This document shows positions 47,308-58,147 of a stretch of DNA of 64,000 bases, piece by piece. Every line of letters begins with the position of its first letter. Within the stretch, counting starts at the first letter, position 1. The notes beneath the pieces were generated by a model. That model searched no databases and was not told the origin of the DNA. It saw only the letters and a list, made by a program, of their open reading frames with translations. Source of the DNA: Streptomyces halstedii (lineage in GTDB: Bacteria > Actinomycetota > Actinomycetes > Streptomycetales > Streptomycetaceae); NCBI GenBank assembly GCA_000720535.1, contig JOAZ01000006.1:186001-250000 (forward strand), given 5' to 3'. The position numbers and the translations under genes are program-made.

Positions 47308-47385
47308 GAAACCCCAGGGCACGAACCACGTGACCTGGGGTTTCGCCGAGCCCCCTGTCGGATTCGAACCGACGACCTACGCATT
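47308..47385. repeat. Left attachment-site repeat: displaced tRNA-Thr 3' fragment with its terminator
   Basis: Positions 47345-47385 are identical over 41 bp to 58070-58110, covering the 3' part of the tRNA-Thr gene up to the anticodon loop. The repeat extends left through a diverged copy of the tRNA terminator (GAAACCCCAGG and CCTGGGGTTTC, 47308-47344). The tRNA 5' part is absent here. This is the signature of site-specific integration into a tRNA gene. The 470 bp that follow (47386-47853) hold a GCTCACGCA direct repeat and no gene. Confidence 0.85.
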
Positions 47386-47853
47386 TAAAGGGCCCGCGAG
47401 ATCCTCCCGGCTGGTGCCGGACGATGCCATAGAATCCCGTTTCCCCAGGTCAGGGACACCTGGCCTTGATCACTATGACGCTGGGTCCACCCTAGTGCTA
47501 CCCAGTCCGCTCACGCAGCGCTCACGCAAGCGAGACGTTCGGCGACCGAAAAACCGCAGGTCGCTGGCCTTCGAAAGGCGACCATCCGTACGGGCCCTCA
47601 CTCCTGGCCCTGCGTGAAGCGCCCCCGAGCCGGAGGCCTTAAACCTCACCCCTCGGCTGGAGCCCAGGGGCCCCGGGCGCTTCCTTCCGATCATCGCGCT
47701 GACCGATGAAGATGGCGGCGAGGTGGTGGTGGCTTCGTCGTAGCGGGTGGCCGGCCCCACCGCCGCTTCAGGGTGAAGCGGTTGCACGCATGCGGTGAGG
47801 CAGGGCCCGTCCAGCGAGATCCGGAAGGGCCCTGTCTGGCCTTGCCGGGATCA

Positions 47854-48057
47854 TCAACCCTTGCTGATCACGAGCCCCGCCATCGCGGCGCTCAACGTGA
47901 GACAGGCTCCGAACGCCGTGCCAGCCTTCAGCAGGACAGCCGGAAGAGGGTTGCCGCCGAGGTGGTGCAGTACGCCCGTGATCCCTCCGCAGATCACGGC
48001 CGTTTCCACGGCTACCAACCCGCTCAACACCCAGATGACGATGTACTCGTATGACAC
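47854..48057 (-). CDS. Small two-helix membrane protein
   Basis: A 67-residue protein from GTG 48057, with AAGGAGGG about nine bases upstream. It has two hydrophobic helices (YIVIWVLSGLVAVETAVICG and VLLKAGTAFGACLTLSAAMA) joined by a short loop with two glycines. It is divergent from the HTH-endonuclease fusion gene and shares its upstream region. Small membrane proteins in defence islands are sometimes toxins or effectors, but there is no direct evidence here. Confidence 0.6.
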   Translation of the reverse strand: MSYEYIVIWVLSGLVAVETAVICGGITGVLHHLGGNPLPAVLLKAGTAFGACLTLSAAMAGLVISKG

Positions 48058-48169: not shown

Positions 48170-49093
48170 GTGACGAACGACCCGCTGGCTGAACTGGGCC
48201 AGCGCCTGACTGACTTGCGTGTGATGAGCGGCTGGAACGTCAATCAGCTGGTCGCTAGGTGCGGTTCTCTGGGGCGGACAGTGATCAGCAACGCACTGAA
48301 CACCCGTAAGGGCCGGAAAATCCCATCTGCGGATACGGTCGTTAGGATCTGCCAGGCTCTCGGCGCGGACTCGACCCCGTTGCTTGAACTGCTCAGGCAA
48401 GCCAAGGAGGATCGGCGGACTCCGCCCCCCGGGCCGCGAGCAGAGGACCGGAGCCGGCAGTTCGCCCGAGAACCCAGCTCTGAGGTAGACGATGCCGCCG
48501 ACACTTCAGGCCGGTTCGACCCGCTACGACGCGAGAACCTGGAACGGTCAGTGCAGTGGGCGCTGGAAAGTGCTCCACCCGTCCCGCTTGCCTCGTTCCC
48601 TGCGGCGCCGGTCGAAGGTCTGTACGCCCTGTACTACGTGGGGTCGCACTCGCTCTATCGCCCGGTGTCCTCATCGGCTTGCGCGGTTCCGATCTATGTC
48701 GGCAAGTCCCTGCCGAGTGGGAAGTCTCGTAGCGGGATGGTCGTCCGGGGTTCCATGAATCGTCGGCTGCGCACTCACCTGAGATCGCTCGTGGACGTAC
48801 ACGACCTTGATGCCCAGGACTTCCTGGTGCGGTATCTCCCAGTAGACGAAATCTGGACGATCGGCCCTGAGCGGCTCATGATCGGTGATCACCGACCGGT
48901 CTGGAACGTCGTCGTCGAAGGCTTCGGGGTCCACATGCGGGGGAGCTTTCGGGCGGCAACGACCCCTCGGACGTTCTGGGATGAGCTGCATCCGGGAAGG
49001 CCGCAGTCCGAGCGCCAGAGGGACGCCGAGTTGAGCCGCGCCGATCTGCAACGGGCGGTGCGGCAGCACTTCGCTCGCATGGCAAGTATCTAA
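48170..49093 (+). CDS. XRE-type HTH fused to Eco29kI-like GIY-YIG endonuclease
   Basis: A 307-residue protein. GTG 48170 is chosen because GGAGGG precedes it; GTG 48143 lies within the operator. Residues about 5-75 form an XRE-type HTH (LGQRLTDLRVMSGWNVNQLV, then a recognition-helix region and SADTVVRICQALGADS). After a 40-residue linker, FDPLRRENLERSVQWAL opens an Eco29kI-family domain. GIY-YIG elements are intact: GLYALYYVG (150-158), IYVGK (175-179), RLRTH ending at His 203, Glu 234 in ERLMI, and Asn 246 in PVWNVVVEGFG. Eco29kI cuts CCGCGG; specificity here is unknown. The HTH suggests a self-regulated restriction enzyme. Confidence 0.8.
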   Translation: MTNDPLAELGQRLTDLRVMSGWNVNQLVARCGSLGRTVISNALNTRKGRKIPSADTVVRICQALGADSTPLLELLRQAKEDRRTPPPGPRAEDRSRQFAREPSSEVDDAADTSGRFDPLRRENLERSVQWALESAPPVPLASFPAAPVEGLYALYYVGSHSLYRPVSSSACAVPIYVGKSLPSGKSRSGMVVRGSMNRRLRTHLRSLVDVHDLDAQDFLVRYLPVDEIWTIGPERLMIGDHRPVWNVVVEGFGVHMRGSFRAATTPRTFWDELHPGRPQSERQRDAELSRADLQRAVRQHFARMASI

Positions 49094-49138
49094 AGCGCAT
49101 GGCTTCGACCGACGGACCAGGGGCTGGGGGCACCCGGA

Positions 49139-49327
49139 CTACAGCATGCCCTTCTCCAACAGATCACGGATGGCGTCGTCTCGCCTGCGAACAACGATCC
49201 GCCCATTCCCGGCGCTATACACAACGACAGCGGCTCCTGGAGACAGCCCCGCCTCCGCGGGTACCCCCAAGGGAATCTCGATGGCGCCTGCTTCGGAGAT
49301 GGTGGCCTCGGCTGGTTCCCTGATCAT
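49139..49327 (-). CDS. AbrB/SpoVT-like small DNA-binding protein
   Basis: A 62-residue protein from ATG 49327. The pattern ISEAGAIEIPLGVPAEAGLS, PGAAVVVYSAGNGRIVVRRR is the swapped-hairpin AbrB fold seen in transition regulators and in antitoxins. It ends with a helix DDAIRDLLEKGML. It lies 42 bp downstream of the second Eco29kI-like gene on the same strand, so the two are probably co-transcribed. It could regulate the nuclease operon. No toxin partner is seen adjacent. Confidence 0.6.
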   Translation of the reverse strand: MIREPAEATISEAGAIEIPLGVPAEAGLSPGAAVVVYSAGNGRIVVRRRDDAIRDLLEKGML

Positions 49328-49369
49328 TCCGCCAGTGCGCCACCGCCCACGGGTCGGCTTAGAGCATGA

Positions 49370-50059
49370 TCAGATCGCTCCGGGGGGCCGCCCGGCCGCG
49401 CTCGTCGGAGGCGTTGCATGCAGCTTCAGGTGCTCGCGGGCCGCTTCTCGGAGTGGCATGGGCCCCGATGGCTGGGGGCGCATCCCGTCGGCCCACGCCA
49501 CACCGGTGTGGACCTCATGCCACTTTGGTCGCATCTGTTCGGCCTGGCGGGGCCCTCCCTGGGGGTTCACGCCGAAGCCCTCAAGTATCACGTTCCAGAC
49601 AGGCTGGAGGTCTTGGATCATCAAGCGCTCGGCCATCGGCGTGAAGAGGTCGTCGGCGGGGAGGTAGCGGACGTAGAAGTCTTCCAGTTCGAAATCAGCG
49701 GCCGCTTTGAGCTTCCGCCTATGGGTCGAGAGTCGCTTCCAAAGCGGTGTTCCTGCCCACGCTTCGGCGACCTCAACACCCTTGCGGCCGCCCTCAGGAT
49801 CAGACTTGCCCACATAGATGGGCACCTCGAACGATCCGGAGATCGGCGCGTACAGCTCGTGGTCCCCCGCGTAGTAGATCGCGTAGATCCCGCAGCCGTT
49901 GAACGACCGGACCCTGTCCATCCGAATAGGCTCGCCGGACGTTAGCGCCCAGAGCACACTGCGCCCGAGGTTTTCCCGTCGAAGCGGGTCGTAGATGCTG
50001 TCGGCGCCAGCCTTTAGCGGCTCGTCCACGACGCCATCGAAGGGTAGTTGGGCTGACAC
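49370..50059 (-). CDS. Eco29kI-family GIY-YIG restriction endonuclease
   Basis: A 229-residue protein from GTG 50059, with GGAGAAG upstream. It matches the C-terminal part of the nearby HTH fusion: YDPLRRENLGRSVLWAL, then GIYAIYYAG (57-65), IYVGK (81-85), KRLSTHRRKL with His 113, FYVRYLPADDLFTPMAERL with Glu 144, and PVWNVILEGFGVNP with Asn 156, and KWHEVHTG. All GIY-YIG catalytic positions are intact. It lacks the HTH. It probably cuts unmodified DNA; the partner methylase is likely the C5 enzyme at 51083. It is followed by the AbrB-like gene. Confidence 0.82.
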   Translation of the reverse strand: MSAQLPFDGVVDEPLKAGADSIYDPLRRENLGRSVLWALTSGEPIRMDRVRSFNGCGIYAIYYAGDHELYAPISGSFEVPIYVGKSDPEGGRKGVEVAEAWAGTPLWKRLSTHRRKLKAAADFELEDFYVRYLPADDLFTPMAERLMIQDLQPVWNVILEGFGVNPQGGPRQAEQMRPKWHEVHTGVAWADGMRPQPSGPMPLREAAREHLKLHATPPTSAAGRPPGAI

Positions 50060-50126
50060 GGCGGCTTCTCCGTTCTTGTTCGGAATCGTTGGCTACTGGA
50101 TGGGATGCTGGTCCGCGCGGGCTGGG

Positions 50127-50966
50127 TCAGCCCCCTGTTGTTGGCGGATCGACTTCGATGTCCCCTGCCGGCTCGGCCTCGGGCACGGCGTTGACGCGTT
50201 GGCCAGCGCGGTAGTACCGCCACGCGCTCTTGTAGTCATTGGGGCTGTCGTCGTACATGATCACGTAGCCCATGAGAGCGGCGACCTGCCATTTAGCCGG
50301 TATCTCCGCCGAGACCAGCTGGAAGACCTCGTCGGCGGTCATTGCGGCCGATGGCACGTGAACGCTTCGAGCCTTGAAGTCCGCCGACTTTCCGTACCTG
50401 AAGTTGTACGGGAGGCCAGCTTTGATCGTCTCCAGGAGTTCCTGCAGCGTCGTCTCGCCGGGCGACAACCCCTTGATCGGTCGGTCAAGATCGATGGGGA
50501 ACACGACGTCGAAGTGGTTCTGCTTCAGGACGGTGCTGTCCCGCTGGCGGCCAGGATCCTTGTTGCCGAAGCCGTTGTTGTTCCAGGGGATGTCGCCCAT
50601 GCCCTTGTGATGGGTGATGAGCAGCTGTTCCGGGGCGAGGGCGGAGAAGTCCTCGGCTACGTACAGGCACGAGAAGGCCATCTCGTCCGGGGAGATGTTG
50701 CGGCGCCCCGAAATCTTGCCGAGGTGGTTGCGGAGACGGGCCGGCAGGGACTTGTCGGCCTTGCCGACGTAGACGAACTCGCCGTTCAAGTAGAGCTGGT
50801 AGACCCCAGGCTTCTCCTTGAGCCGCGCGATGTTCGGCTCCGTGAGTGGAGCCCTGTCGAGTCCATCGAGGGCGGCGGCCAGCTGGTCACCGAGCGCCTT
50901 GGTGATGCTCAACGTGAAGTCCTTGTGGTACTGCGTCCCGTCGTCGGAGCCCACCACCGGCGTCAT
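50127..50966 (-). CDS. Third GIY-YIG nuclease, divergent type
   Basis: A 279-residue protein from ATG 50966, with AGGGAG eight bases upstream. The GIY-YIG domain includes KPGVYQLYLNGEFVYVGKAD (about 52-71), LPARLRNHLGKI with Arg 77/79 and His 81, the metal-binding Glu 113 in LAPEQLLITHHKG, and WNNNGFGNKDPGR (Asn 129-131). The C-terminal 130 residues, with HFDVVFPIDLDRPIKGLSPG, have no family I know and may hold specificity. It is distinct from the two Eco29kI-like enzymes. It is divergent from the methyltransferase gene across 116 bp, the usual layout of restriction-modification pairs. Confidence 0.75.
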   Translation of the reverse strand: MTPVVGSDDGTQYHKDFTLSITKALGDQLAAALDGLDRAPLTEPNIARLKEKPGVYQLYLNGEFVYVGKADKSLPARLRNHLGKISGRRNISPDEMAFSCLYVAEDFSALAPEQLLITHHKGMGDIPWNNNGFGNKDPGRQRDSTVLKQNHFDVVFPIDLDRPIKGLSPGETTLQELLETIKAGLPYNFRYGKSADFKARSVHVPSAAMTADEVFQLVSAEIPAKWQVAALMGYVIMYDDSPNDYKSAWRYYRAGQRVNAVPEAEPAGDIEVDPPTTGG

Positions 50967-51048
50967 CGGTCCCACTCCCTTGTCGGCCTGATCCCGGGCA
51001 GCCTATCGGCGACCTGCACACACTGACGAACCTTCAGCTCGAAGCGGC

Positions 51049-51076
51049 TTGAAAATCTACAACTCCGCGGTATGCT
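51049..51076 (+). promoter_or_regulatory. Methyltransferase promoter containing CCGCGG
   Basis: TTGAAA (51049-51054) and TATGCT (51071-51076) are separated by 16 bp; the ATG follows 6 bases after the -10, so the mRNA is probably leaderless. The spacer ends with CCGCGG (51065-51070), the sequence cut by Eco29kI-family enzymes, which suggests that methylation could tune this promoter. Confidence 0.55.
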
Positions 51077-51082
51077 TTTGAA

Positions 51083-52399
51083 ATGGCTGAACTGCAAGAA
51101 GGATCAAAGAAGGACCGCACGGGGGTCGAGCTCTTCGCTGGCGCCGGCGGTCTGGCCATGGCCGTCCACCGTGCCGGATTCCGCCCCCTGCTCTTCAATG
51201 AGTTCGCCAAGCGGGCGTGCGAGACCCTGGAGGCCAACGGGGCCAAGCGGCTACCGGACGGCCAGAAGCCGACGCGGGCTCCCGAACCCGACGAGAAGGT
51301 GCCCCTCGTCGCGGGCGATGTCCAAGAACTCGACATGGACTACCTGGCCGGCGAAGTGGACGTCCTCGCTGGCGGCCCTCCCTGCCAGCCGTTCAGCCTC
51401 GGCGGCGTCGCCAAGGGCGACGAGGACAAGCGGAACATGTTCCCCCAGATGTTCAAGGCCGTCCGGCAGATCCAGCCGAAGGCCGTGATCTGCGAGAACG
51501 TCCGCGGTCTACTCAGGCCCTCATTCCGTCGCTACTTCGACTACATCCAGCGTGAGCTGGAGCTGCCTTTCGAGGAGCGAGTCGACGGCACCGACTGGGA
51601 GCAGCACTACGAGTACCTGCTGGAGCGCCGCGAGAAGGAGCTGGACGATCCCGGGAAGCGGTACGACACCGTCATGATGCCGGTGAACGCGGCCGACTAC
51701 GGGGTTCCGCAGATTCGCAATCGCGTGATCATCGTCGCGTTTCGTCGCGACCTGAACGCCGACCTTGAGCTCTTCAAGGATCTCGTGAGGCCGACGCACT
51801 CCGAGACTGCCCTCTTCCGATCCATGGAGGACGGGAGCTACTGGGAGCGGCACGCGAATGTGCCCGACCACGTGCGCGAGTGGGTCATGGCCCGCCTCCC
51901 GAAGTCCATGCCCATGGACGACCGCCTGCTCCCCTGGCACACCCTGCGTGACGCGATCGTCGGTATCGGTGACAACAAGCCACTGCCAGAGGTACCGGAC
52001 GAGTGGCTGGACCGCACCGAGCACTTCCTCGGCGGGTTCACGGAACACGTCGGTTGGCCCGGTGCCCGCATCTACGACGGGCACACCCCCAACGAACTCG
52101 ACCGCCCGGCGAAGACCGTCAAGGCCGGCGTGCACGGCGTGCCCGGCGGCGAGTCGGTCATGCTCCTGGACGAGCTGGTGGCCGACAAGGCCGCTCAGGG
52201 CGGCGTCCGGTACAAGTACCGGTACATGACGGTTCGCGAAACCGCTCGCGTCATGACCTTCCCCGACACGTGGGAGCTCAAGGGCCCGCGGGGGGAGAAA
52301 ATGCGCCAGCTCGGCAACGCCGTACCCGTTGCCCTTGGCGAGGTCTTCGCCAAGGCGGTCGCCGCCGTCCTGGACGAGGCGGAGGTGCGCCAGAAGTGA
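51083..52399 (+). CDS. DNA (cytosine-5)-methyltransferase
   Basis: A 438-residue C5 methyltransferase from ATG 51083. Motifs: I GVELFAGAGGLAMAV (residues 14-28), IV GGPPCQPFS with catalytic Cys 101, VI ENVRG (138-142), VIII QIRNRVIIVAF (210-220), and X QLGNAVPVALG (409-419). The target-recognition region between VIII and X is of ordinary size. It methylates cytosine in a specific sequence, protecting DNA from the linked endonucleases. Its stop overlaps the vsr start (GTGA). The C5 type together with Vsr means deaminated 5-methylcytosine is an anticipated by-product. Confidence 0.93.
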   Translation: MAELQEGSKKDRTGVELFAGAGGLAMAVHRAGFRPLLFNEFAKRACETLEANGAKRLPDGQKPTRAPEPDEKVPLVAGDVQELDMDYLAGEVDVLAGGPPCQPFSLGGVAKGDEDKRNMFPQMFKAVRQIQPKAVICENVRGLLRPSFRRYFDYIQRELELPFEERVDGTDWEQHYEYLLERREKELDDPGKRYDTVMMPVNAADYGVPQIRNRVIIVAFRRDLNADLELFKDLVRPTHSETALFRSMEDGSYWERHANVPDHVREWVMARLPKSMPMDDRLLPWHTLRDAIVGIGDNKPLPEVPDEWLDRTEHFLGGFTEHVGWPGARIYDGHTPNELDRPAKTVKAGVHGVPGGESVMLLDELVADKAAQGGVRYKYRYMTVRETARVMTFPDTWELKGPRGEKMRQLGNAVPVALGEVFAKAVAAVLDEAEVRQK

Positions 52400-53184
52400 C
52401 GGCGCCCACCAGCAGAGCGCAGAGCGGCTGGAAGCACGACCCGCCGCCGGACCGGGCGTGGAAGGGGCGGCCCGGCAGGGCACGCTCCGCCATCGCCGCT
52501 GAGCAGGACCGGGCGGCCGGCGGTCGTCACAGACGATCTGTGGACCTCGGCGAGGGGCGCTTCGCCCGAGCCTCTGTGGAGCTGAAGGTTCTTCCCGACA
52601 CACGACGCATTCGCGCGTACCTGCGCTGGTCCGACGGTGGCAAGTCCCCGGCCCGCTACCTCGGACAGGTCGAGCACGAGACCCGGGCCGCTAACCTCGC
52701 TGAGGGTTGGAGGATGGCCTGGGAAAAGGGCCTTCTCACCGAGGAACCGCCGGCTGAGGGCTCCTGGGCTTCCTCGCCATCCGTGCGTGCGGTGATGCGG
52801 GGCAACAGGAACAAGGACACCCGGCCAGAGCTGCGACTCCGCTCCTTGCTGCACAAGCAGGGCCTCCGCTACCGCGTGGCGGCACGGCCGCTTCCCGAAC
52901 TGCGACGAACCGCCGACGTGTTGTTCTCCAAGCCAAAGGTTGCGGTCTTCGTTGACGGCTGCTACTGGCACGGATGCCCCGAGCATCTTCGGGAGTCACA
53001 CAAGAACGCCGAGTTCTGGCGTAGCAAGATCGAGGGCAATCGCGCTCGCGATGCCGAGACCGACCGCCTGCTTGGTGAAGCGGGGTGGACCGTCGTCCGC
53101 GTCTGGGAGCACGAAGATCCTGTGGATGCCTGCGCTCGGATCGAGGGCATAGTGCGACAGGCATCAAGGGACTCGACCGGTTAA
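52396..53184 (+). CDS. vsr: Very-short-patch repair endonuclease with N-terminal extension
   Basis: A 262-residue protein from GTG 52396, overlapping the methyltransferase stop. The Vsr domain (about residues 125-255) reads MRGNRNKDTRPELRLRSLLH, RRTADVLFSKPKVAVFVDGC and YWHGCPEHLRESHKNAEFW, with the catalytic Asp in TADVLF and the Cys/His zinc site. Vsr nicks T:G mismatches caused by deamination of 5-methylcytosine. E. coli Vsr has about 156 residues; here about 115 extra N-terminal residues include RRIRAYLRWSDGGKSPARYL and GQVEHETRAANLAEGW, which look like a small separate domain I cannot name. Confidence 0.9.
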   Translation: MTAPTSRAQSGWKHDPPPDRAWKGRPGRARSAIAAEQDRAAGGRHRRSVDLGEGRFARASVELKVLPDTRRIRAYLRWSDGGKSPARYLGQVEHETRAANLAEGWRMAWEKGLLTEEPPAEGSWASSPSVRAVMRGNRNKDTRPELRLRSLLHKQGLRYRVAARPLPELRRTADVLFSKPKVAVFVDGCYWHGCPEHLRESHKNAEFWRSKIEGNRARDAETDRLLGEAGWTVVRVWEHEDPVDACARIEGIVRQASRDSTG

Positions 53185-53251
53185 AGACAGCGCCCGGGAA
53201 GTGCGTTCGCGGCTACGTGCTTGACTCCACCATTGAGGCATGGGGCATGGC

Positions 53252-53348
53252 ATGAACGATTCGATCGTTGAGTGGGCGGCACTGGTGGCGGAGGCAGAGC
53301 TCCGGAGTCCCCTTCCCCGGCGGTGGGCGCATACGCGTGGTGCGGCTG
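53252..53348 (+). pseudogene. Truncated HD-domain phosphohydrolase gene
   Basis: From ATG 53252 the frame reads NDSIVEWAALVAEAELRSPL, PRRWAHTRGAAG and then loses similarity exactly where a transposon-like inverted repeat begins (53349). The preserved part is typical of the start of small actinobacterial HD-domain proteins, which have His in RRWAH. The remainder of the gene is not found on the far side of the insertion, so it has been deleted or replaced. Confidence 0.55.
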
Positions 53349-53383
53349 GGGCCTGTCCGACGGATCTTGTGACCGTCTCGGTC

Positions 53384-54308
53384 CTAGTTCGTTGGCAGGC
53401 TCATGGGGCGGGGAGACCTCACAGGCGAAGAATGGGCTCGGCTGAAGCCGCATCTGCCGAGGTCCTGGCAGCGCGGGGGACGTTGGGGCAGCCACCGCGA
53501 GATCATCAATGGGATCTTGTACCGGAACCGGACCGGGGTGCCGTGGCGGGATCTGCCCACACGTTTCGGCAAGTGGAAGACCGTGTACGAGCGGCATCGG
53601 CGCTGGTCAGCAGACGGAACGTGGGACAGGCTCTTCGCGGCCGTCCTGACCGACGCCGACGAGGAAGGCCGCATCGACTGGTCGATGGTGAGCGTGGACT
53701 CCACCTCCTCCCGGGCCCACCAGCACGCCGCCGGAGCACGCAAGAAGCCTCCAAGGCTGCCGGGGAAAAGACACACGCCCCGGCGGCAGCACCGCCCCGA
53801 CGAGGAACTCGGACGCTCCCGTGGTGGCCTGACTTGCAAATCCACCCCGCCGGTGAGGGAGGGCGCCGGCCACTGGCCCTGCTGATCACCCCAGGCCAGT
53901 GGGGCGACGCCCAGCAGCTCATCCCGGTCATGGAGCGTGTCCGGGTCGCCCGCTTGGGCGGTGGGCGCCCCCGGACTCGGCCCGACCATCTCGGCGGCGA
54001 CAAGGCGTATTCCTCTCGCCGCAACCGCCGTTACCTGCGACGGCGCCAGATCAAGCACATGATCCCCGAGCCGAAAAACCAGCGGGCCAACCGCCAAGCC
54101 CGTGGCAACAAGGGCGGCCGGCCTGCCGGATTCGACAAGACGATCTACAAGCGCGGGAACGAAGTTGAGCGGACGATCAACGCACTGAAGAACTCCCGGG
54201 CAGTAGCTACCAGGTTCGACAAGCGCGCCTACATCTTCCACGGCACCGTCACCCTCGCCGCAGTCCGACTCTGGCTCTGCAGGTGATCCCACCCCTGACA
54301 AACCCTAG
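53384..54308 (+). mobile_element. IS5-family insertion sequence flanked by CTAG
   Basis: CTAG occurs at 53384-53387 and 54305-54308, consistent with a duplicated target. Next to these, TTCGTTGGCAGG on the left and the complement of CCTGACAAAC on the right are weakly matching ends. The transposase fills nearly all of the interior. The exact ends were judged by eye. Confidence 0.55.
53403..54286 (+). CDS. IS5-family transposase in two frames (frameshifted)
   Basis: The first frame (53403-53885) encodes DLTGEEWARLKPHLPRSWQR, GVPWRDLPTRFGKWKTVYER and the first catalytic Asp in MVSVDSTSSRAHQH. The second frame, one base back, continues through IHPAGEGGRRPLALLITPGQ to the second Asp in LGGDKAYSSRRNR and the Glu in NEVERTINALKNSR, ending at 54286. 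A -1 shift is needed, either at GGGGAAAAG (53762-53769) or near TGCAAATCC about 75 bases later. Programmed -1 frameshifting is known in this IS group, so it may be active; a disabling mutation is the alternative. Confidence 0.75.
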
Positions 54309-54882: not shown

Positions 54883-57378
54883 TCACAGATCCATAACGGC
54901 TCCAAGCGTGTCACCGAGCCGCTCAGAGATCGCGTTGTTCTTCTTCCTGATCCCTGCCACAGCCTTCGCGTACGCGCGCTGAACCTCGGCGGGCTCCGGA
55001 TCGAAACCCGCCTCGCTCCGAGCCTTTACTGCATCTTCGACAAGTTCGGCAAGCCGGACGGCTTGTTCGAGAGCTGCATCTACGCTCTCTCGCAGTTGGT
55101 CAATTCGCGGAGTGACCTGCTCGCGGAGCTCCGCAGCCCGGGCAGCGGGATCCACGAAGTCATGCGCACTACGCGCGGACTGCTCCGTCTCATCACCCTC
55201 GTCCACAATCGACTCGCTGTGATCTTCAGCATTCTGATCTTCATCGGTGGCATCGTCACCACGCCCCGTCCGTGCTCCCGCGAGCTTCGGAAACATGAGG
55301 TCGTACCAACCCTTGTCGGCCAGCACTCCCACCCGTGGACTCCCATCAGCGCCTAGGGCCCAAAATGTCCCCGGGGCTTTGCCGTCCACGCCATCAGCCG
55401 CCTCCGGAGCCCCTAGAACCGACCGCGCGAACACCACGAGCAGCGCATGGGTTACAGAGTCACGCTCAGGCTCTGTAAAGGCCCGAACCAACGCAAGCAC
55501 GGCGTTGGACGGCGTACGACGATCGCCCTTGCGTTCGGCACTCGTCTCCGACCCTTGCCCCGCCGTGATGAACGGCTCCGCCGCATTCACCAGCCCTGGG
55601 ACCATGTGCCGCCGGACGAGTACATTCCAAGCCGCTGCATCGCCGGTCTCACAGGCGGCAATGAGGACGTCTAGCGATCGGCGGTCCTGCACGACCCCGT
55701 ACTGGGTATCCTCGGCGGAAAAAAGTCCGCCCATCGCCGCAAGGTTGCGCTGGTGGACGAAATGCTGGGCAATGGCCGCGGCCCACACCTCCGTGCGCCG
55801 CTCTGCACGCTTCCCGCCCTTGGAGCTCCAGGGAGCCTCTTGGAGGGCTCCTCTGACGACCGGCCAGTAGCGACCAGTCGGCATCCAGGCTCGTGGCGGG
55901 AGGTCCTTAGGACGGGGCGGAACGGGGGGAAACAGCAGCACTGTCGTACAGCGAATCGCCATGTCCCGCAGATCAGCAGGTGCGGGCTCTACGTCGGTCG
56001 GCAGCAGGGCGGCCAGCGGGTCCAGGGGCCCCGCTCCCACCAGCGCGTCCACAATTCCCGGCTCATCCAGGCTGGACGGTTCTACCCTGCCCCCCGTCAG
56101 CTCGCCCGCCAGGAGCGATGTCAAGAGATTCGCTTCCTGGTACGCGGTCACCAGAAGGGTCCAGAGTCCCAGGCTCCTGTCCTCGTCCTCGAATAGCAGC
56201 TGGCCACGCAGATGATCATGGATGTTCAGATCACGCAGCGATGCCTCAAGACGCGCTGGGGAGGCAGCACCAACAACGACCCGGACAGGCACTTCAGCGA
56301 TCCGCTCGGCGCGGCTCGAACGGCACTCCGTGTCCTGCTCTGGGTCCACGGAGTCAACGCGTTCGGCATTGAGCTTGCCACTGACACGCCGCAGGATTTC
56401 GGGCAGCCCCCGCAGAAGTAGGTTGCGATCCGCCTTCTCCCCATCGCGGACCAAGAGCGGTTGCGGCACGCCCGTAAGAAGATGCTCTGCCTCGATGCCG
56501 AAGATCTGCAACCGGGCGTCGGCTCGGTTGTTCCCCGTGACCTGCATAAGTCGCCACGCAGAGAATCGAGTCCCATCAGGATCGGTCATACGTGTCTGCT
56601 GCAGCACTGCAACGGTGGACTCCCGCTGCCCCTCCTGCGACATCGACTCCACCAGGTCATAAGGACGGAGACGGCCACGTTCCCGCATCTGCTGGACAGC
56701 GAACCTCTGCACCGATGCCGCCAGGTCAACCGACATCAGCTCCGTGGTCAATGCGGCCCGCGCAGCTCCATCCTCTTGAGCTGCTTCGACCAGAGGAAGC
56801 GGCCGCCGCGCGCCCAGTGCTACGACGGCATCACGGTGGTCGACTGCAACCCGCTCCCGCACAGCCTGCGCCGCCTCCACGGCCTTTACCGCAGCGTCCT
56901 TCTCCGCCGATGTCGCCCCACGCCCCAACGCTCGCTGAGCGTCCTTCGCTCGACGCAGAGACGCCTCGGCTCCCGCAAGGGCCAATTCGGCAGCCACGAG
57001 GTGTTCATGCCGGACGATGTTCTCTGCCGTCGGCCGAACCCAGCTGCTCCGCGTACGGTCGTTGAGCGCCCACGGGAGCATTCCTGCCCCATGGCCGGAA
57101 AGGTTCAGCAGCAGCAGAGCGTGAGGGGTGCCCCTACCCTCAATGTGATAGGCGGCGGCCTTGAGACGGGGTTCACCGTTCCGGGGGGTCTCGACTACCC
57201 GCTTAGCCTCACCAGCAGCAAGAGTTGGCGCCAGCCCCTCGATCACCGCCTGCCTAGGCGGCGGCACCAGACCAGCGTCAGCGCAGGTGCTCACGATGGC
57301 CCGGTACAGCTTCTCCGGCCACTCCCCCGCCGTCGGGTACGGAAACGGCCCCTGAAGGTCCTTCTTACGGGATGCCAT
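54883..57378 (-). CDS. Large 831-residue island protein, unknown function
   Basis: ATG 57378 (MASRKKDLQGPFPYPTAGEW) is the likeliest start; GTG codons further upstream are in frame, and GGGAGGAAGG lies 15 bases before the ATG. Residues about 130-190 are helical and Ala-rich (coiled-coil-like). Around 225-300, ASVQRFAVQQMRERGRLRPY, RMTDPDGTRFSAWRLMQVTG and NNRADARLQIFG faintly recall ParB/DndB-like domains, but this is weak. No Walker, helicase or nuclease motif is evident. The C-terminus has an acidic linker (DDATDEDQNAEDHSESIVDE) and a final helical region. Position beside restriction-modification genes suggests a defence role by association only. Confidence 0.7.
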   Translation of the reverse strand: MASRKKDLQGPFPYPTAGEWPEKLYRAIVSTCADAGLVPPPRQAVIEGLAPTLAAGEAKRVVETPRNGEPRLKAAAYHIEGRGTPHALLLLNLSGHGAGMLPWALNDRTRSSWVRPTAENIVRHEHLVAAELALAGAEASLRRAKDAQRALGRGATSAEKDAAVKAVEAAQAVRERVAVDHRDAVVALGARRPLPLVEAAQEDGAARAALTTELMSVDLAASVQRFAVQQMRERGRLRPYDLVESMSQEGQRESTVAVLQQTRMTDPDGTRFSAWRLMQVTGNNRADARLQIFGIEAEHLLTGVPQPLLVRDGEKADRNLLLRGLPEILRRVSGKLNAERVDSVDPEQDTECRSSRAERIAEVPVRVVVGAASPARLEASLRDLNIHDHLRGQLLFEDEDRSLGLWTLLVTAYQEANLLTSLLAGELTGGRVEPSSLDEPGIVDALVGAGPLDPLAALLPTDVEPAPADLRDMAIRCTTVLLFPPVPPRPKDLPPRAWMPTGRYWPVVRGALQEAPWSSKGGKRAERRTEVWAAAIAQHFVHQRNLAAMGGLFSAEDTQYGVVQDRRSLDVLIAACETGDAAAWNVLVRRHMVPGLVNAAEPFITAGQGSETSAERKGDRRTPSNAVLALVRAFTEPERDSVTHALLVVFARSVLGAPEAADGVDGKAPGTFWALGADGSPRVGVLADKGWYDLMFPKLAGARTGRGDDATDEDQNAEDHSESIVDEGDETEQSARSAHDFVDPAARAAELREQVTPRIDQLRESVDAALEQAVRLAELVEDAVKARSEAGFDPEPAEVQRAYAKAVAGIRKKNNAISERLGDTLGAVMDL

Positions 57379-58032
57379 CTCGAGGACAGCCTTCCTCCCG
57401 ACGCCAATGCCCACGGACACGTCGCCGGGTATGAACGAACGCGTCCAGCAGAGGCCGGGCGCGGCACGCACCCGGGGACCGCAGACCTCGTTCCACCAAG
57501 GTCATACGTGGGCCGCCGCTCCCGGATCTGTCCCTCTGGGATAAGAAACGGTGCGGCCGTCGACCCCCTACGAGTCCGTTCTGCGGGTGATGCACGCGGA
57601 CATCTCCTCAGACACTCAGGAGGAACGCATGGCTCATACCCCTCGACCCTCCGCCGACGGCGGCATGGGGGGAATGGAACGACAGGATCACTGACGTGCA
57701 CTCAGAGCTTTGCGGGCCCCTGACCGCAGTCACATCAATTTGAAGGAAATGCCACGCAGATTCACCAAAAGCCACGGTTTAGGACAGCCCCTGTGATAAG
57801 GCCGCGATCACCTCGGCACGGAACACTCGATGCGGCCTGGTATTCAAGCACGCGTCGGCCAGTCAACGAGCTCCTCTGCGGATCAAGAACACCGGCGAGG
57901 TTGCAGCCAAGCTGTCCACTCCAGCGCGGGACCACCACCAGGCCACCGCGAGAAGGGACCCACTGCGGCTCCGCTCACGCATGCAACGCCACGGCACCCC
58001 GGCCGCGTCACGCGCCATGCCCCGAGCAACCG
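57379..58032. other. Gene-free right end of the island
   Basis: About 650 bp between the 831-residue gene and the tRNA terminator. Short open frames on both strands lack ribosome-binding sites or family resemblance. Its first part should hold the promoter of the large gene. An integrase would be expected here next to the tRNA but none is visible. Confidence 0.55.
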
Positions 58033-58069
58033 AAAACCCCAGGTCACGGGCTACGTGACCTGGGGTTTT
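58033..58069 (-). terminator. tRNA-Thr terminator
   Basis: Perfect 16-bp arms AAAACCCCAGGTCACG / CGTGACCTGGGGTTTT with a 5-base loop, directly downstream of the tRNA on the minus strand. A diverged copy lies at 47308-47344. Confidence 0.9.
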
Positions 58070-58073
58070 GCCG

Positions 58074-58147
58074 AGCCCCCTGTCGGATTCGAACCGACGA
58101 CCTACGCATTACAAGTGCGTTGCTCTGGCCAGCTGAGCTAAGGAGGC
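58074..58147 (-). tRNA. tRNA-Thr (anticodon UGU)
   Basis: The minus strand folds as a full cloverleaf: acceptor GCCTCCT/AGGGGGC (one G-U), D stem GCTC/GAGC, anticodon stem ACGCA/TGCGT with loop CTTGTAA, and T stem GTCGG/CCGAC with loop TTCGAAT. The discriminator is U and no CCA is encoded. Anticodon TGT reads Thr codons. Its 3' part is the attachment core of the island. Confidence 0.95.

What the first reader, a model, noticed from the sequence alone, without database searches (positions are those of the whole stretch)
48170..53184. Three different GIY-YIG nucleases clustered with a C5 methyltransferase and Vsr
Within 5 kb the island encodes an HTH-Eco29kI fusion, a second Eco29kI-like enzyme, and a third, unrelated-looking GIY-YIG nuclease, with one cytosine methyltransferase and a Vsr. 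Seen directly: all three nucleases keep the Tyr/Tyr, Arg, His, Glu and Asn positions of the fold. Known: Eco29kI-type enzymes are ordinary Type II restriction nucleases, normally one per methylase. Inferred: this is a multi-nuclease restriction system in which one methylase protects against several cutters, or in which the nucleases split roles (for example phage cleavage versus regulation). I do not know of a described system with this composition.
Basis: partly seen in the sequence, partly recalled or inferred. Interest (0 to 1): 0.85.

Follow-up and report, generated by a model that had tools for sequence, protein, structure and literature searches.

The report
One methylase, several interchangeable DNA cutters
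A soil bacterium carries a restriction system in which one protective DNA methylase is accompanied by several related DNA-cutting enzymes; relatives in other actinobacteria keep one cutter, the other, or both, which suggests that the cutters share one DNA target.

Summary
In detail: three intact GIY-YIG nucleases, one C5 methylase and a Vsr at 48.1-53.2 kb. The arrangement recurs: of the 80 best of 140 loci with a nuc3-type nuclease, 79 also have methylase and Vsr, and 35 an Eco29kI-type nuclease. The two types replace each other beside closely similar methylases: L059 (Eco29kI type, with a nuc3 scar) versus L063 (nuc3 type), methylase 90.4% identical. The likely target: CCGCGG, the Eco29kI site, abuts a -10-like box in the methylase promoter in 78 of 87 loci; 0 of 394 other predicted genes have it at -18. 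Best reading: a CCGCGG (SacII/Eco29kI-type) Type II system with two interchangeable nucleases (nuc2, nuc3) and a methylase promoter that probably senses its own mark. nuc3 is a remote Eco29kI relative. nuc1 (HTH fusion) is a separate cassette, found without this methylase in two genomes; its role is open. Nothing was assayed. New variant of a known kind.

The parts
47309..47393 (.). left att-like direct repeat (partial tRNA-Thr copy)
   Evidence: 85 nt, 91% identical to 58034-58118
47854..48057 (-). small divergent membrane-protein ORF, travels with nuc1
   Evidence: tblastn: same ORF in front of nuc1 in L043, L044, L057, L058 (two copies), L085
48114..48150 (.). inverted repeat TTGTTCACC-N19-GGTGAACAA in front of nuc1, candidate operator of its HTH
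   Evidence: only exact match in window, 0 in 100 shuffles; kept in L044, L057, L058, right arm deleted in L043
48143..49093 (+). nuc1: HTH_31 + Eco29kI-type nuclease (possible start 48170)
49139..49327 (-). 62-aa AbrB/MazE-like ORF behind the nuclease genes
   Evidence: Pfam MazE_antitoxin E 0.021, below cut-off; homologues in 31 of the 110 loci searched, some of them the same genome twice
49370..50059 (-). nuc2: Eco29kI-type nuclease
   Evidence: PF09517 1.6e-40; R.Eco29kI 3mx4 3.3e-21
50127..50975 (-). nuc3: divergent GIY-YIG nuclease, remote Eco29kI relative with a longer C-terminal part
51065..51070 (.). CCGCGG site in the MTase promoter
   Evidence: sequence
51071..51076 (+). TATGCT, -10-like element shortly before the MTase ATG (leaderless transcript inferred)
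   Evidence: TA and final T in 56 of 56 non-redundant loci anchored on CCGCGG
51083..52399 (+). C5-cytosine methyltransferase
   Evidence: PF00145 1.2e-51; sister to the M.Eco29kI group
52396..53184 (+). Vsr endonuclease with conserved ~125-aa N-terminal extension
   Evidence: TIGR00632 8.3e-34; best PDB fold match 1cw0
58034..58118 (.). right att-like direct repeat, overlapping tRNA-Thr(TGT) 58073-58147

Best explanation
The core is a Type II restriction-modification system for CCGCGG (the SacII/Eco29kI site). The MTase puts m5C on CCGCGG and Vsr repairs the T:G mismatches left when that m5C deaminates. A divergent gene set, nuc3-nuc2-AbrB-like ORF, makes two GIY-YIG nucleases that both cut unmethylated CCGCGG, so one methylase shields the host from both. 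Either nuclease can serve alone, and loci gain, lose and swap them. The MTase starts from a probably leaderless promoter whose -10 box abuts a CCGCGG site, so methylation of that site probably lowers MTase transcription and sets the methylase level. nuc1 is a separate cassette, probably autoregulated by its own HTH at an inverted repeat, that landed beside the system in a tRNA-Thr island. Shown by sequence: gene content, intact catalytic residues, recurrence, the swap, the conserved promoter site. Inferred: target sequence, cleavage, operons, feedback, any role of nuc1.
For: Genus sample (composition): 28 of 392 genomes have a PF09517 match; by my tally 11 carry both types, 9 nuc3-type only, 6 Eco29kI-type only, 2 nuc1 alone. 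Genome contigs: of the 80 best loci (140 found), 79 have nuc3-type + MTase + Vsr, one (L142, at a contig end) shows no Vsr, and 35 also carry an Eco29kI-type gene. Of those 36 Eco29kI-type genes, 16 lie 68-230 bp from nuc3 on its strand and 11 lie 52-148 bp from Vsr on its strand, measured between match ends. Swap: L059 v L063, MTase 90.4%, Vsr 88.3%, four linked genes 87-93%; L059 keeps only residues 1-33 and 237-262 of nuc3. Second case: proteobacterial Vsr-MTase-nuc3 type (L186-L188) v Vsr-MTase-Eco29kI type (L042), MTases 56-61% identical. Promoter: CCGCGG within 120 nt of the MTase start in 74 of 87 loci, background 10.9% of windows; 57 of 87 at exactly -18, and CCGCGGTA...T in 78 of 87 after allowing for four starts that I take to be misplaced; of 394 other predicted genes in the 30 neighbourhoods 24 have CCGCGG at -60..-5 and none at -18. 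Two of the exceptions read CTGCGG, as m5C deamination would leave. dN/dS medians: nuc3-type 0.145, Eco29kI-type 0.107, MTase 0.093, Vsr 0.114 in ten loci with both nucleases.
Against: Nothing was assayed; CCGCGG as the target of nuc3 is inference. The 87 loci share descent, so they are not 87 independent cases. The L059 nuclease is only about 30% identical to nuc2. The 80 loci were ranked by likeness to nuc3, so 35 of 80 is not an unbiased rate. In one search at most 9 candidates per genome were scored, so its counts are lower bounds. dN/dS for the Eco29kI type was usable in 23 of 45 pairs, with one value of 1.19; in small groups single values reached 0.60 (nuc3 type), 0.70 (Vsr) and 0.56 (Eco29kI type). 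CCGCGG avoidance does not clearly mark genomes with the system: observed/expected 0.69 with, 0.79 without.
Confidence: 0.7

Rival explanations
1. Turnover only: Eco29kI-type and nuc3-type genes are selfish passengers that join any locus whose methylase already blocks their site; two at once is a passing state with no benefit.
For: Decay is seen: nuc3 scar in L059, broken nuc2 copy in L050, Eco29kI-type gene beside an MTase fragment about 10 kb away in L052, nuc3 fragment beside an Eco29kI-type gene in L105. On the MTase tree, presence of the Eco29kI type needs at least 20 changes in 95 rows (shuffled labels 22-39).
Against: Low dN/dS medians for both nuclease types in loci that hold both and recurrent gene slots (27 of 36 Eco29kI-type genes close to and co-directional with nuc3 or Vsr).
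Confidence: 0.35
2. Role splitting: the two nucleases share the site but differ in substrate, for example one site at a time versus two sites bridged, or different tolerance of modified cytosine.
For: Known members differ: Cfr42I is a tetramer that cuts two sites at once, Eco29kI cleaves one site at a time (PMC4081073, passage seen); R.DraR1 cuts m5C-CCGCGG while Eco29kI is said to be hindered by m5C (PMC10855626, passages seen). The C-terminal part of nuc3 beyond about residue 185 has no counterpart in the profile alignment with the Eco29kI type.
Against: No direct data; loci with one nuclease persist.
Confidence: 0.3
3. Hetero-oligomer: nuc2 and nuc3 are two subunits of one Type IIT-like enzyme.
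For: Adjacent, co-directional genes; two-subunit REases exist (PMC4081073, passages).
Against: Loci with only one of the two are common: 44 of 80 with nuc3-type, MTase and Vsr but no Eco29kI-type gene on the stretch held, five Streptomyces loci with MTase, Vsr and only Eco29kI type. R.Eco29kI binds its site as a homodimer (PMC4081073).
Confidence: 0.05
4. nuc1 is the controller of the whole system (C-protein-nuclease fusion).
For: HTH fused to a nuclease; natural regulator-REase fusions are known (PMC3850674: start of abstract in the listing; the term search met only its reference list).
Against: Its candidate operator occurs once in the window, before nuc1 only. nuc1 with its upstream ORF is found without a close relative of the MTase in L057 and L058. 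The right arm of the repeat and the start of nuc1 are deleted in L043 while the other four genes stay open.
Confidence: 0.12

Closest known systems
Eco29kI R-M system (also Cfr42I; R.DraR1 with an m4C methylase)
   Same: GIY-YIG nuclease with the same six residues, linked C5 MTase of the sister clade, CCGCGG site
   Different: one nuclease listed per methylase, R and M overlap in one direction; no CCGCGG before the MTase or the nuclease of the copy read (L073); no AbrB-like ORF in its (incomplete) gene table
SacII of Streptomyces achromogenes (CCGCGG; enzyme and source recalled, not from a call)
   Same: S. achromogenes NRRL B-2120 holds a similar locus (L093: nuc3-type 82% to nuc3, MTase 85% to its best-matching query, Vsr, Eco29kI-type)
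   Different: that this locus encodes SacII is inference; the rest of that genome could not be searched
MORC/paraMORC R-M neighbourhoods (Iyer et al. 2008, PMC2292703, passages seen)
   Same: C5 MTase + Vsr core; 19 of 80 relatives carry MORC-type ATPase and Mrr-helicase beside it
   Different: ATPase and helicase not found in the window island; the paper's main text has no 'GIY-YIG' (term search)
CfrBI and LlaDII, methylation-controlled promoters
   Same: cognate site in the MTase promoter
   Different: known to me here from one passage and two reference titles of a review (PMC3874152); other sites, other nucleases

Membership tests
Eco29kI-type Type II R-M | GIY-YIG nuclease of PF09517 with Y49 Y76 R104 H108 E142 N154 | tested here: met
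   nuc1 and nuc2 over cut-off, residues kept; nuc3 keeps all six but scores 30.4 v 30.8 bits (31.5 with its neighbours in frame)
Eco29kI-type Type II R-M | linked cytosine methylase related to M.Eco29kI | tested here: met
   42% identity to the MTase of L073, sister clade
Eco29kI-type Type II R-M | recognition of CCGCGG | tested here: inconclusive
   indirect: promoter motif in 78 of 87 loci, recognition-domain resemblance; no cleavage or methylation data
Type IIT (two-subunit) REase | both subunits required | tested here: not met
   single-nuclease loci common
C-protein-REase fusion (for nuc1) | HTH regulator fused to the nuclease | tested here: met
   HTH_31 4e-7
C-protein-REase fusion (for nuc1) | controls its R-M operon through operators | tested here: inconclusive
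   operator-like repeat before nuc1 only; nuc1 occurs without a close relative of the MTase
MORC/paraMORC R-M system | GHKL ATPase and SF2 helicase in the neighbourhood | tested here: not met
   none among the nine island proteins scanned; present in 19 of 80 relatives
Methylation-controlled R-M promoter | methylation of the site changes transcription | not testable with these tools
   site and position conserved

The most novel reading that the evidence does not exclude
A widespread actinobacterial class of Type II systems in which one methylase is served by two same-site nucleases of different build, so that a phage blocking or evading one still meets the other, with a leaderless methylase promoter that reads its own mark; plus an HTH-gated Eco29kI nuclease (nuc1) that lives without this methylase in some genomes and would act as an inducible chromosome-cutting (abortive infection) effector there.
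Probability: 0.2. Interest if true: 0.8.

Novelty: new variant of a known kind. Interest (0 to 1): 0.55.

Why it matters
Type II systems are usually thought of as one nuclease per methylase. Here natural swaps, scars and pairs of nucleases around one methylase family let one ask directly why a second same-site nuclease is kept. The CCGCGG site in the methylase promoter makes the target and a feedback model testable at once, and points to a candidate gene set for the classic SacII activity.
Full report
What is there. The window is high-GC DNA of a 7.74-Mb genome. Between a partial and a complete tRNA-Thr copy (85-nt direct repeats 47309-47393 and 58034-58118, 91% identical; tRNA-Thr 58073-58147) lies an island of lower GC. 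It carries the five genes of the finding, an AbrB/MazE-like ORF, a small membrane ORF, an IS5-type transposase and an 862-aa protein of unknown kind. I use nuc1, nuc2 and nuc3 for the three nucleases from left to right.

Not unique. In 392 genomes of the genus, 28 have a PF09517 match (at most 9 candidates per genome scored). From the neighbourhoods and follow-up searches, my tally is 11 genomes with both types (in G059 the Eco29kI-type gene is about 10 kb off), 9 with nuc3-type only (one of them, G049, without the MTase), 6 with Eco29kI-type only (one, G114, with two) and 2 with nuc1 alone. A scan of the species genomes of genome contigs with the nuc3 alignment gave 140 relatives, of which the best 80 were kept. 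Of these 80, 79 have nuc3-type, MTase and Vsr together, one at a contig end shows no Vsr, and 35 also have an Eco29kI-type gene on the same stretch. Of the 36 Eco29kI-type genes in those 35 loci, 16 lie 68-230 bp from nuc3 on its strand, 11 lie 52-148 bp from Vsr on its strand, and 9 lie elsewhere (between match ends). The set reaches Nocardia, Frankia, Micromonospora and Myxococcus, and plasmids of Ruegeria, Rhizobium and Methylocaldum. Because the 80 were ranked by likeness to nuc3, 35 of 80 is not an unbiased rate.

Interchange. The best single case is L059 against L063. MTase 90.4%, Vsr 88.3% and four linked genes 87-93% are shared, yet L063 has only nuc3-type and L059 only an Eco29kI-type gene. 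L059 keeps scars of nuc3 (residues 1-33 and 237-262) between its MTase and its Eco29kI-type gene. In L050 the nuc2 copy is broken while nuc3 and a second Eco29kI-type gene stand. In Proteobacteria Vsr-MTase is followed by nuc3-type (L186-L188) or by Eco29kI-type (L042), MTases 56-61% identical. On an MTase tree of 95 rows, the state (nuc3, Eco29kI, both) needs at least 24 changes (shuffled 30-44), presence of the Eco29kI type 20 (22-39), presence of nuc3 7 (8-10), with 200 shuffles each. The tree is a quick one with flagged long branches, and 80 of its rows were chosen because they have nuc3. With that reserve, nuc3 looks the steadier partner and the Eco29kI type comes and goes.

Selection where both occur. 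In ten Eco29kI-Vsr-MTase-nuc3 loci, median dN/dS is 0.145 (nuc3), 0.107 (Eco29kI; 23 of 45 pairs usable, one at 1.19), 0.093 (MTase) and 0.114 (Vsr). Medians in four small tandem groups lie at 0.075-0.20, except one Eco29kI pair at 0.56 between proteins 31% identical; single values in the closest group reach 0.60 (nuc3) and 0.70 (Vsr), from few changes. Between the window and L044, nuc2 is 0.12, nuc3 0.10 and nuc1 0.46. Against L043, nuc2 is 0.14, nuc3 0.05 and nuc1 0.89, the last with a misaligned start. nuc1 against L057 and L058 is 0.44 and 0.35. So nuc1 is under weaker constraint than nuc2 and nuc3, on small numbers.

The target. Upstream of the MTase, CCGCGG lies within 120 nt in 74 of 87 loci (80 plus seven Streptomyces loci), against 10.9% of random windows of that length; the next palindrome, TGATCA, reaches 24 of 87. 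In 57 of 87 it is at exactly -18 and abuts a TATGnT-like box. Four further loci have CCGCGGTA...T just inside the start that my script chose, which I take as misplaced starts; with these, 78 of 87 have it. Of 394 other genes predicted by my simple caller in the 30 neighbourhoods, none has CCGCGG at -18 and 24 have it at -60..-5. Of the nine without the motif, two read CTGCGG at the same place (L102, L154), as deamination of m5C at the second C would leave; L162 and L164 read GCGCGG and TCGCGG; three are Myxococcus; L142 has CCGCGG only at -232; L144 has none. The same site is the known target of Eco29kI and Cfr42I (PMC4081073) and of R.DraR1 (PMC10855626). The MTase is sister to the M.Eco29kI group, with a related recognition-domain motif. 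The motif is absent before the reference MTases of L040-L042, L073, L075 and L186-L188. S. achromogenes NRRL B-2120 has the locus (L093). That this species is the source of SacII (CCGCGG) is recalled, and that L093 encodes SacII is inference.

Regulation. I infer that methylation of the promoter CCGCGG lowers MTase transcription; dependence on the methylation of a cognate site in the methylase promoter is reported for other systems (one review passage, PMC3874152, citing CfrBI and LlaDII work). The AbrB-like ORF follows nuc3 or nuc2, or lies by Vsr, in 31 of 110 loci searched, some of them the same genome twice. Its Pfam score is below cut-off, so the family is a lead.

nuc1. A 1.4-kb block of nuc1 and its small divergent ORF is 91-92% identical in L057 and L058, genomes in which only partial 38-39% matches to the MTase were found. 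The three genomes with nuc1 beside the system share a stretch of about 6 kb from nuc1 to Vsr at about 97.5% identity, in islands at the same tRNA-Thr, while the chromosomal stretches compared beyond the tRNA are 82-93% identical; the rest of the islands differs. I read this as one travelling stretch, not three inventions. An inverted repeat lies across the start of nuc1 and is kept in L044, L057 and L058; L043 has lost its right arm together with the first codons of nuc1. I read nuc1 as an autoregulated passenger whose target is unknown.

Verdict. It is a new variant of the Eco29kI-type Type II system, not a new kind. The features most worth testing are why a second same-site nuclease is kept and what the self-target in the methylase promoter does.

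Noticed in passing
52396-52785: Vsr carries a ~125-residue N-terminal extension conserved in the 16 aligned relatives, window included, with no Pfam match; its model shows four strands and a helix at residues 48-110, and the only matches at E 0.001 or better are Vsr structures.
   Followed up: partly
54883-57471: 862-aa protein without Pfam, NCBIfam or PADLOC match; 16 of 150 genus genomes, the window's own included, have a match, in G068 two copies near the two chromosome ends.
   Followed up: partly
53240-54286: IS5/DUF4096-type transposase inside the island, its two parts in different frames.
   Followed up: no
L059:13594-18280, also L051, L055, L060, L063, L069: MORC-type GHKL ATPase, Mrr-fused helicase and a 199-aa protein beside the same R-M core (domains read in L059; gene families, where L051 shows only the ATPase and the ~199-aa protein) and ATPase plus helicase in 19 of 80 genome-contig loci.
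   Followed up: partly
window: CTCGAG is strongly scarce outside the island (observed/expected 0.09) and stands first among the scarcest palindromes in the other two region sets too (0.32 and 0.49).
   Followed up: no
L071:7717-11657: The same genome has a second place with two C5 methylases and another Vsr; the PF09517 matches of the genome lie elsewhere.
   Followed up: no
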